A stretch of 35,418 bases of DNA from Thermococci archaeon (GTDB lineage: Archaea > Methanobacteriota_B > Thermococci > Thermococcales > Thermococcaceae). Of this stretch, positions 31,381-34,534 are shown piece after piece (within the stretch, counting starts at the first letter, position 1; each line of letters opens with the position of its first letter). A program made the translations under genes and the position numbers. The notes under the pieces are model-generated. The model worked only from the letters and a program-made list of their open reading frames with translations, did no database searches and was not told where the DNA came from. The DNA is taken from assembly GCA_013153595.1 (NCBI GenBank), contig JAADEC010000081.1, positions 1-35,418 of the forward strand. Reading direction: 5' to 3'.

Positions 31381-32157
31381 TCAGTCCGCTAATTTATGGA
31401 GCTCATTTATAAATCTATCGCTCTTCCTCATCAATATCTTGAGAGCTATGGCCACCATTTCCTCAACAGGGAGCTCTCCATTGCTTTCCACTGTGAAGAC
31501 GAAAGTTCCTGGCACGATCTCTTCCCTTATCTTATCGCCGATATGGTGCTCGAACGCACGGGGGATGTAGAAGGCCCTTACGGTGGATATCACCAGTTCA
31601 TCTTCCTTATTTTCAATGGGCAGGTTCCTGCGCTCGGCAAGCTTCTTCAGTTCCTCCCATCCCTCAACGTCCTTGCTCACGTGTATCCTCGTCAGGTACT
31701 TGTAGTAAACGTACCCCGGCTGCCACTTCGCGTGATCCCTACCGCGTCCGAGGCGTGCGTACGCGTTGAATGACAGGCGCTGTCCGTCCGCCAGCTTGAC
31801 TATCGGTACGTTTGGATTCGCTGGAACCACGTCGTCATCGCTACTCCTGAGGTCTCCGGAGTACACCATCCCCGGGCCCTCAGCCTCAAGACTGAGTGTA
31901 ACCGTGTAGTCGTCGAGATCAAGTGAATCGAGGGAGAACCTCTCGTAGGGCGTCGTCAGGGGCAGCATTGCAAGCCTGTGGGCTATTATTTCATCGAACA
32001 GGGCGGAGTCGTTTTCAAAGAACTCAACCTCATCCACTGCAAATGTGGGGACGTCGGCAAGGATGGTCCTCCTGAGGGCGTTAACGAACGAAACGTCCGC
32101 CCCCTCCACAAGGAACTTAATCGAATCCTCTCCCCTCTCAAGCACCTTGAACTTCAT
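31381..32157 (-). CDS. rpo3: DNA-directed RNA polymerase subunit D (Rpo3)
   Basis: [49 protein letters not shown]. Confidence 0.95.
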
Positions 32158-32172
32158 CAGCATCACCGCATC

Positions 32173-32598
32173 TCAGACGCGCCTGCCCCTTCTTCCGCCC
32201 TTCGGCCTGGTTCCATCATGGGGTATCGGGGTCACGTCCTCGACGCGTCCAATGCGAAGTCCGGCCCTTGCCAATGCCCTTATGGCGGCCTGAGCTCCCG
32301 GTCCCGGGGTCTTGCTCTTGCTTCCCCCGGGGGCGCGCACCTTTATGTGAACCCCAGTGAATCCCTTCTCCATGGCCTCTTCGGCCGCTCTTCTTGCCGC
32401 TATCATGGCGGCGTAGGGGGAAGGTTCGTCCCTGTCGGCCTTGACGACCATACCACCGCTCCACCTTGAGACGGTTTCTGAGCCCGTTATGTCGGTTATG
32501 TGGATTATCGTGTTGTTGTAGCTGGAGTATATGTGAGCCACACCCCACTTCTCCCTCTTCTTAAGGCTCCTGGCTTCGGTTCCAGCCTCGGCACTCAT
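32173..32598 (-). CDS. rps11: 30S ribosomal protein S11
   Basis: [48 protein letters not shown]. Confidence 0.96.
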
Positions 32599-33140
32599 CT
32601 GGACTCACCCCCTTCCCTTGCCTGCTCTATAACCATCCTCTCGGGATGTCCCTCTCTCGAGAATGGAGAGGTCCTCACGTACCCTATGCCGTCCTCTTCC
32701 TCCTTGAGGACGAGGTAACCGGGTGACCTCATAATCTTCCCGCCGACGGATATGTGACCGTGAACTATGAGCTGTCTCGCCTGCTTTATAGTTCTCGCAA
32801 GCCCCTTCCTGAAGACCACGGTCTGGAGACGCCTCTCAAGGACGTCCTCGAGCGTCAGGGAGAGCACATCATCGAGCACAGCATCTGCAGGGAGAAGCCC
32901 GAGCCTGTTGAGCCTCTGAAGCAGCTGCTTCCTCTCGATCTCAGCCTGCCTTCCGCGGGCCGCAAGGAGCCTTCTTGCCCTGCGCCTGAACTCCTTAAGC
33001 TGGGTTTCGTGCCTCCAGAGCTCCTTCTTGTTCTTCAGGGCGTACTTCCTCATGAGAACTCTCTCGCTGTCAAGACGCTCCTTAATCCACGGGTGGGAGG
33101 GAGTTTCATACTTCTTCCTGGGCCTCTTAGGATCCCCCAT
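32595..33140 (-). CDS. rps4: 30S ribosomal protein S4
   Basis: [26 protein letters not shown]...[26 protein letters not shown] overlap with rps11. Confidence 0.96.
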
Positions 33141-33157
33141 TCAAACACACCCCCAAT

Positions 33158-33610
33158 TCACTTCTTCCTCCTGCTCACACCAAGGGTCTGACCGTGCCTG
33201 AAGTTGGAACGTGTCCTCTGACCCCTGAGGGGCAGACCGAGCTCATGCCTTATACCGCGATAAGCCCTTACCCTCCTCAGCCTGTTGACGTCCTCACGCC
33301 ATGCCATGACGAGTTTCGCCGTCGTCAGGTGGACGTCCCTTCCAGTGTCGTAGTCCTTCGGCCTGTTGACGCTCCACGGCGGAATCCCCTTTGACACCGG
33401 GTCGGCCAGTATGCTCTCTATGAGCTTAACCTGCTCGTCCGTCAGGTATCCTGTCTTCATGTACGGGTCCAAACCCGCCACCTTACAGAGCATGGTGGCG
33501 AAGTTTATTCCTATCCCCTTTATGCCCGTAAGCGCCCATCTGAGCTGTCTATCACCGTTTAAGTCCACGCCTGCAACGCGGACTATGTGCCTGAAGTTCT
33601 CACCATCCAC
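33158..33610 (-). CDS. rps13: 30S ribosomal protein S13
   Basis: [33 protein letters not shown]...[24 protein letters not shown] 33610 after GGGGGTG; the longer ORF runs into tRNA-Ser. Confidence 0.95.
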
Positions 33611-33644: not shown

Positions 33645-33731
33645 TGGCGCCGGGACGGGGATTTGAACCCCGGTGGGCAAACGCCCACGGGCTCTCAAGG
33701 CCCGCGCCATCCCAGGCTAGGCTATCCCGGC
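33645..33731 (-). tRNA. tRNA-Ser (anticodon TGA), CCA encoded
   Basis: Reverse complement GCCGGGATAGCCTAGCCTGGG...CGGGC-CTTGAGA-GCCCG...long variable arm...CGGGGTTCAAATCCCCGTCCCGGCGCCA. Confidence 0.95.
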
Positions 33732-34304
33732 GTAAACCCTGTAACCGGAACCTTTCGCCAGCTCGTGCACCTCAGTGAATGCCTCCTCCATCAACCCCTT
33801 AATATACTTTGCCCCTTGTCTGGTTCGAATCACCAGCTGAAGCACACCAGCATCGTTGAGATGTTGGGGAGCGTTTATAACTATTTCCCTAAGGACAGCC
33901 TTCCCGGCGTGAACGGGAGGGTTGGTTATTATCGAATCGAACCTTTCTCCCCTCACAGGCTCGTAGAGGTTCCCCCATCTCACCTCAGCGTTGGTGACCC
34001 CGTTGATCCCGATGTTCCTCCTTGCCAGCTCAACTGCCCTCCTGTTTACATCCACCATGACGACCTCCCTGACGAACCTCGAGGCCACGATGCCGATGAC
34101 CCCGTAGCCGCACCCGAGGTCAAGGACCCGCCAGTTATCCTTAAGCACCATGCTCTCCACCAGCAGTTCCGTTCCCCTGTCTATCCTTCCAAAGGAGAAA
34201 ACCCCGCTCGACGTCAGGAACTTGAAGCAGTAACCCCTAAGGCACGCTCTTATTTCCCTCACCCGCATCCGACCGCCCGGTGTCTCCGAGTAGTAGTGTC
34301 CCAT
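33717..34304 (-). CDS. Class I SAM-dependent methyltransferase (RsmC/MJ0882-like)
   Basis: NWRVLDLGCGYGVIGIVASRFVREVVMVDVNRRAVELARRNI and FDSIITNPPVHAGK (NPPxHxG). Confidence 0.9.
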   Translation of the reverse strand: MGHYYSETPGGRMRVREIRACLRGYCFKFLTSSGVFSFGRIDRGTELLVESMVLKDNWRVLDLGCGYGVIGIVASRFVREVVMVDVNRRAVELARRNIGINGVTNAEVRWGNLYEPVRGERFDSIITNPPVHAGKAVLREIVINAPQHLNDAGVLQLVIRTRQGAKYIKGLMEEAFTEVHELAKGSGYRVYAGIA

Positions 34305-34534
34305 GGTTCATGAAACGAGCCGCCGCAAATAAGTGTATCTGCGCCGGCGGGCGCGATCGCCGTTCAGTTACGTGGCGGACAAAGTGGGCACCGGACGGGT
34401 GAATGGTCAAGGTCACCATGGACACAGTTAAAGTTGAACGGGACGGTAGTACCGTGTAAGTCCCGCGGATTCTTAAAAAATAGCACAAAAAGATTAAATA
34501 TTTTGAGAGAGCACGTTAATGGCGGTGGAACTGC

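What the first reader, a model, noticed from the sequence alone, without database searches (positions are those of the whole stretch)
33717..33731. Methyltransferase stop codon lies inside tRNA-Ser(TGA): 15-nt same-strand CDS/tRNA overlap
The last codons TAC|GCC GGG ATA GCC TAG (Y-A-G-I-A-stop) share their final 15 nt with the 5' acceptor strand and D-arm start of tRNA-Ser (GCCGGGATAGCCTAG...). I see no TATA box 25-30 nt upstream of the tRNA, so both probably share a transcript. RNase P cleavage would then remove the mRNA stop codon, making tRNA maturation and methyltransferase translation mutually exclusive on each transcript. This could couple tRNA-Ser processing to expression of an RsmC-like enzyme.
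Basis: partly seen in the sequence, partly recalled or inferred. Interest (0 to 1): 0.7.

Follow-up and report, generated by a model that had tools for sequence, protein, structure and literature searches.

The report
tRNA supplies upstream gene's stop codon
In heat-loving archaea of the Thermococcus family, a methyltransferase gene ends inside the next tRNA gene and borrows its stop codon from the tRNA, while the DNA just upstream, still inside the methyltransferase gene, also carries what looks like the tRNA's own promoter, so one stretch of DNA does several jobs.

Summary
The 15-nt overlap is real: the MTase stop TAG is tRNA-Ser(TGA) nt 13-15. It is not a local oddity. 84 of the 89 Thermococcaceae genomes in which I could read the MTase 3' end have exactly this overlap. 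The other five, one Pyrococcus-like clade, lost it.

The MTase CDS holds a BRE/TATA-like element, GGAAATAGTTATAAAC, 157 nt upstream of the tRNA. Its four codons (GAA ATA GTT ATA) are the only degenerate codons outside the tRNA that are invariant in 82/82 genomes, and it scores within the range of tRNA promoters of this genome. In the clade that lost the overlap, the element stayed with the tRNA in an 81-nt gap under strong purifying selection (0-1 changes versus 9-32% at MTase third positions); the MTase got its own stop and tRNA nt 13 changed from T to C.

Best reading: a compacted junction. The promoter of the tRNA-Ser/rps13-rps4-rps11-rpoD operon is embedded in the MTase 3' coding region, and the tRNA lends the MTase its stop. 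Regulatory coupling through RNase P is unproven and dispensable.

The parts
33717..34304 (-). MTase CDS, 195 aa, MJ0882/RsmC-like (PF05175 MTS)
   Evidence: PF05175 E=4.8e-45; MJ0882 structure 1DUS E=5.5e-47 over residues 5-191
33645..33731 (-). tRNA-Ser(TGA), CCA encoded at 33647-33645
33717..33731 (-). 15-nt overlap; MTase stop TAG (33719-33717) = tRNA nt 13-15
   Evidence: 84/89 genomes
33873..33888 (-). P2: BRE/TATA-like element GGAAATAGTTATAAAC inside MTase codons 139-144; predicted start site about 33851 (inferred from the usual 23-nt spacing)
   Evidence: score 14.7; scored training promoters 14.7-22.7, except tRNA-Ser GGA 1.6; one of 8 hits >=13 in the window; codons 140-143 invariant in 82/82
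33798..33813 (-). P1: weaker TATA-like element GGCAAAGTATATTAAG inside MTase codons 164-169
   Evidence: score 8.9 here, up to 13.8 in relatives; degraded in G060, G056, G068, G055, G050
34325..34340 (-). weak candidate promoter of the MTase itself (AGATACACTTATTTGC), 36 nt upstream of its start
   Evidence: score 4.3 here; median 11.9 in 83 relatives, mostly TTTATAAAC at -36
33158..33610 (-). rps13, next gene after the tRNA; start GTG at 33610 chosen by eye
   Evidence: (ORF), homology
31381..33140 (-). rest of the presumed operon: rps4 (33140-32595), rps11 (32598-32173), rpoD (32166-31381)
   Evidence: gene names from sequence knowledge

Best explanation
This is a compacted gene junction with two independent overlaps. 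(1) The MTase reading frame has no stop of its own and terminates at the TAG that tRNA-Ser carries at nt 13-15. The fold of the enzyme is finished at ...GYRVY, so the last four residues AGIA are simply what the tRNA sequence encodes. (2) The promoter of the downstream unit (tRNA-Ser, then rps13-rps4-rps11-rpoD) lies inside the MTase coding sequence, chiefly as P2 at -157 and possibly also as P1 at -82. Most tRNA-Ser would therefore come from transcripts that start within the MTase gene and cannot make MTase. Full-length MTase transcripts from its own promoter must run into the tRNA to include the stop, and each one that RNase P cuts becomes a stop-less mRNA. Shown here: the overlap, its conservation, the DNA-level constraint on P2, and the persistence of P2 and P1 with the tRNA after the overlap was lost. 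Inferred: that P2 is an active promoter, where transcription starts, and the fate of MTase transcripts.
For: Exact overlap in 84/89 genomes of all six family genera. Codons 140-143 GAA ATA GTT ATA are invariant in 82/82 full-length overlap genomes and are the only invariant degenerate codons outside the tRNA; if four invariant codons were dealt at random among the 71 positions with an invariant amino acid, the chance that they adjoin is 1.5e-5. P2 scores within the range of tRNA promoters of the same genome, and only 8 sites in the 35-kb window reach 13 on either strand. The 14-mer GAAATAGTTATAAA occurs once or twice per genome, one copy being this one, in 9 of 10 genomes tested. Natural experiment: in G005, G007, G010 and G011 the MTase ends with its own stop (AGKK*), P2 and P1 survive in the 81-nt gap, and the gap differs by 0-1/81 while MTase third positions differ by 9/101 to 62/196 (G005 v G011: Fisher p = 4e-10). 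There the MTase residues over P2 read ERIIREAP, resembling distant relatives, instead of REIVINAP. The broken clade nests inside overlap genomes (100/96 support), so the loss is derived. T. kodakarensis dRNA-seq reports 644 start sites inside ORFs, 90 of them judged primary starts of a downstream gene, including in the rpoN region of this gene cluster (PMC4247193).
Against: No start-site, transcript-end or expression data for this junction were seen. P2 is about four times further from the tRNA than the promoters of standalone tRNAs (-37 to -51), giving a predicted leader of about 120 nt. Its score is at the low end. A third, stronger TATA-like site (P3, -290) occurs in most relatives but not in the window genome, so which element matters is unsure. 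The 82 genomes are related, so invariance counts overstate independence. The promoter model was trained on only 24 tRNA genes. In the lineage of G009, P2 itself is replaced by another TATA-like sequence (AGAAAGGTTTATAAAA).
Confidence: 0.77

Rival explanations
1. One reading: MTase, tRNA-Ser and perhaps rps13 share one transcript. RNase P cutting and MTase translation are mutually exclusive on it, which couples tRNA-Ser maturation to MTase level as a regulatory device.
For: The stop lies inside the tRNA, so cleavage must remove it. The overlap is kept across a whole family. MTase-tRNA-Ser-rps13 order also occurs in another family of the class (f3), with the TAG sharing the first tRNA base. No promoter is found at the usual distance before the tRNA.
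Against: Embedded promoter-like elements are under DNA-level constraint. Most genomes have a separate promoter-like element before the MTase. The overlap was lost in one clade while both genes were kept. The stop is a generic tRNA-Ser feature, not a special adaptation.
Confidence: 0.15
2. Frozen accident without any promoter: the MTase lost its own stop long ago, the tRNA supplied one, and the arrangement persists by descent. P2/P1 conservation reflects protein or codon constraints only.
For: One origin and one loss explain the distribution. The AGIA end is dictated by tRNA sequence. Genes here are densely packed: rpoD ends 1 nt and rps2 4 nt before their tRNAs.
Against: The amino-acid sequence over P2 changed once the overlap was broken, yet the P2 DNA stayed in the non-coding gap. 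Wobble positions of codons 140-143 are invariant while neighbouring codons vary.
Confidence: 0.08

Closest known systems
Promoters and start sites embedded in upstream ORFs of Thermococcus kodakarensis (Jager et al. 2014, PMC4247193)
   Same: BRE/TATA elements near the 3' end of an ORF drive the next gene; examples include the rpoN region of this same gene cluster and a tRNA (TKt26) with its own primary start.
   Different: The text does not say which tRNA TKt26 is (tRNA-Leu after rpoD is as likely). It does not describe the MTase stop inside tRNA-Ser or its conservation.
CDS/tRNA overlaps and tRNA punctuation in animal mitochondrial genomes (own knowledge)
   Same: A protein gene ends at or inside a tRNA, and tRNA excision competes with keeping the mRNA's stop.
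   Different: Mitochondria can remake stops by polyadenylation, and their transcripts have few promoters. Here the stop is a full TAG in the tRNA and the tRNA probably has its own upstream promoter.
MJ0882 (PDB 1DUS), RsmC-like MTS-domain methyltransferases
   Same: Full-length relative of the MTase (residues 5-191, E=5.5e-47).
   Different: Residues over P2 (REIVINA) differ from MJ0882 (HRIIEEG). The substrate of this enzyme is not established; RsmC itself matches well below the curated cut-off (80.7 v 295 bits).
tRNA-mRNA dicistronic transcripts, e.g. tRNA-Lys in the 159-nt 5'-UTR of TK0306 (PMC4247193)
   Same: tRNA co-transcribed with a downstream protein gene, as proposed for tRNA-Ser and rps13.
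   Different: There the tRNA lies upstream of the CDS, within its leader; no stop codon of another gene inside the tRNA is described.

Membership tests
Same-strand CDS/tRNA overlap (stop inside tRNA) | in-frame stop of a genuine CDS lies within the mature tRNA on the same strand | tested here: met
Same-strand CDS/tRNA overlap (stop inside tRNA) | conserved in relatives rather than an annotation artefact | tested here: met
   84/89 genomes
Archaeal promoter embedded in an upstream CDS | BRE/TATA sequence matching promoters of the same genome | tested here: met
   P2 score 14.7 against training range 14.7-22.7 apart from one outlier; low end
Archaeal promoter embedded in an upstream CDS | DNA-level constraint beyond protein coding | tested here: met
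Archaeal promoter embedded in an upstream CDS | mapped transcription start site about 23 nt downstream | not testable with these tools
   published start-site tables are supplements, which could not be read here
   promoter-like elements upstream of the tRNA argue against it; no expression data
   five genomes have a gap of 81 or 158 nt
RsmC (16S rRNA m2G1207 methyltransferase) | passes the curated equivalog cut-off | tested here: not met
   80.7 bits against cut-off 295; MTS domain itself met

The most novel reading that the evidence does not exclude
The stop-in-tRNA is a standing translation/processing conflict that is actually used: MTase output is set by competition between ribosomes terminating in the tRNA and RNase P, so that RNase P activity or tRNA-Ser folding tunes an RNA methyltransferase, with stop-less MTase mRNA handled by archaeal ribosome rescue. 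It is kept family-wide and relaxed only in one Pyrococcus-like clade.
Probability: 0.12. Interest if true: 0.8.

Novelty: new variant of a known kind. Interest (0 to 1): 0.5.

Why it matters
One short stretch of chromosome encodes a protein end, a stop codon, a tRNA and very probably the promoter of a tRNA/ribosomal-protein/RNA-polymerase operon, and this has lasted through an archaeal family. It gives a clean, testable case of tRNA processing against translation termination in a genetically tractable group (T. kodakarensis). The one clade that took the overlap apart shows which parts of the junction are under selection. It also cautions gene finders that a CDS may properly end inside a tRNA.

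Tried and rejected
I first favoured P1 (TATATTAAG, -82), but five genomes have degraded it while all overlap genomes keep P2. The idea that T13 is held only by the stop was weakened: 40/40 unlinked tRNA-Ser isoacceptors also have T13, so only the single T13-to-C13 change in the broken clade remains in favour. Horizontal replacement of the MTase in the broken clade was not supported: its MTase groups with neighbouring g3 genomes. Literature searches for the tRNA-Ser/rps13 junction and for archaeal CDS/tRNA stop overlaps found nothing on point. Consensus folding of the spacer after the tRNA gave no common structure.

Full report
Observation. On the minus strand an MTase ORF (34304..33717, 195 aa) ends inside tRNA-Ser(TGA) (33731..33645). 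The shared 15 nt read GCC GGG ATA GCC TAG, with the TAG at tRNA nt 13-15. The MTase is an MTS-domain protein closest to MJ0882. It should not be called RsmC, because it is far below that equivalog's cut-off. Next on the strand come rps13, rps4, rps11, rpoD and tRNA-Leu.

Conservation. I searched 94 genomes of the family with the tRNA and the MTase, fetched the junctions and recomputed both genes. Of 89 genomes with a readable junction, 84 have the same 15-nt overlap in the same frame, ending YAGIA-TAG. Five genomes of one genus (G005, G007, G009, G010, G011) do not; their MTase ends AGKK or AGRL and the tRNA starts 81 or 158 nt later. In family f3 of the same class the order MTase-tRNA-Ser(GGA)-rps13 also holds, with a TAG whose G is tRNA nt 1. 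In f2, f4 and f5 the MTase has no tRNA beside it. In the window genome no other of about 31 tRNAs examined has a recognised CDS ending inside it.

What the tRNA imposes. All 40 unlinked tRNA-Ser isoacceptors examined read T-A at nt 8-9 and GCCTAG at nt 10-15, so the stop is a normal part of a tRNA-Ser and not an adaptation. Two differences are notable. Nt 9 of the overlapped tRNA is C (59), A (13) or T (12), never G, and these are the three isoleucine codons of the MTase. Nt 13 is T in all 84 overlap genomes and C in all five without overlap. The second is a single evolutionary event. Both fit mutual constraint but do not prove it.

Promoter. A weight matrix from 24 of them finds, inside the MTase CDS, P2 GGAAATAGTTATAAAC at -157 (14.7 bits; training promoters 14.7-22.7 apart from tRNA-Ser GGA at 1.6). 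It also finds P1 at -82 (8.9 here, up to 13.8 elsewhere). In most relatives, but not in this genome, there is a third site, P3, at -290 (17.5-20.4). Only 8 sites in the 35-kb window reach 13 on either strand; P2 is one, and another (18.8) lies in the rpoD 3' end 41 nt before tRNA-Leu. Shuffling synonymous codons rarely rebuilds P2 in place (0.3-4% in nine genomes); a site this good somewhere in the gene is commoner in the AT-richer genomes (up to 39%).

DNA-level constraint. In 82 full-length overlap genomes the only invariant degenerate codons outside the tRNA are 140-143, GAA ATA GTT ATA, exactly P2. The invariance is partly shared descent, but neighbouring codons of the same gene vary freely.

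Natural experiment. In G005, G007, G010 and G011 the MTase stop TAG falls within a P2 copy (AAGAAATAGTTATAAACGC). The 81-nt gap that follows contains the rest of P2, then a remnant of the old MTase 3' end with P1 (GGTAAAGTTTATTAAAGG...), then the tRNA. The gap has 0-1 differences between these genomes while MTase third positions differ at 9 of 101 to 62 of 196 (p = 4e-10 for G005 against G011). The MTase residues that used to overlay P2 have changed from REIVINAP to ERIIREAP, resembling distant relatives. The MTase tree puts these genomes as one clade within overlap genomes. A tandem duplication joined at the short similarity between the tRNA start (GGGATAG) and P2 (GGGAAATAG) would give this layout; that route is inference. 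The lesson is that the promoter-like DNA and the tRNA belong together, and that the overlap with the MTase is dispensable.

Mechanism. Most likely tRNA-Ser and the ribosomal operon are transcribed from P2 (and perhaps P1), starting within the MTase gene, and a separate, generally weaker promoter makes MTase mRNA (TATA-like element at -36 in most relatives, weak in this genome). MTase mRNA needs the tRNA 5' end for its stop, so RNase P and a terminating ribosome cannot both act on it at once. That conflict is real by geometry. Nothing here shows that it is used for regulation. In T. kodakarensis, start sites inside ORFs are common and include the rpoN part of this cluster (PMC4247193); P. furiosus shows a peak of internal starts at ORF ends (PMC6640164). 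I could not read the site tables themselves.

Verdict. A confirmed, family-wide and unusual junction. The mechanism is probably genome compaction with an embedded promoter, not a switch.

Noticed in passing
MTase codons 95-100 in relatives (e.g. L013, about 290 nt before the tRNA); absent in the window: P3, GGAAAAAYTTAAAAAT, a strong promoter-like site (17.5-20.4) with rare, nearly invariant TTA and AAA codons in most overlap genomes; it is missing in the window genome and weak or missing in G004, G006 and G008. Its role is unknown.
   Followed up: partly
window 31405-31420 (-): Promoter-like CGATAGATTTATAAAT inside the 3' end of rpoD, 41 nt before tRNA-Leu(CAG), which starts 1 nt after the rpoD stop.
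   Followed up: partly
between tRNA-Ser and rps13 in relatives (e.g. L013, L020): A short hairpin AATCC...GGATT just before the rps13 ribosome-binding site in most genomes, in two loop forms; absent in the window and in g3. Could be a processing or regulatory element.
   Followed up: partly
L101, L103-L105, L107, L108, L110, L111, L113 (family f3): MTase-tRNA-Ser(GGA)-rps13 with a one-base overlap: the MTase stop TAG uses the first G of the tRNA.
   Followed up: partly
tRNA-Ser nt 9, window 33723: The overlapped tRNA-Ser has C9 or T9 in 71 of 84 genomes although all 40 other tRNA-Ser copies seen have A9; it varies like an isoleucine third codon position.
   Followed up: partly
window 33732 (tRNA nt -1): The base before the tRNA is T in 70 and C in 14 overlap genomes (C here); a C there could pair with discriminator G73 and shift RNase P cleavage.
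   Followed up: no
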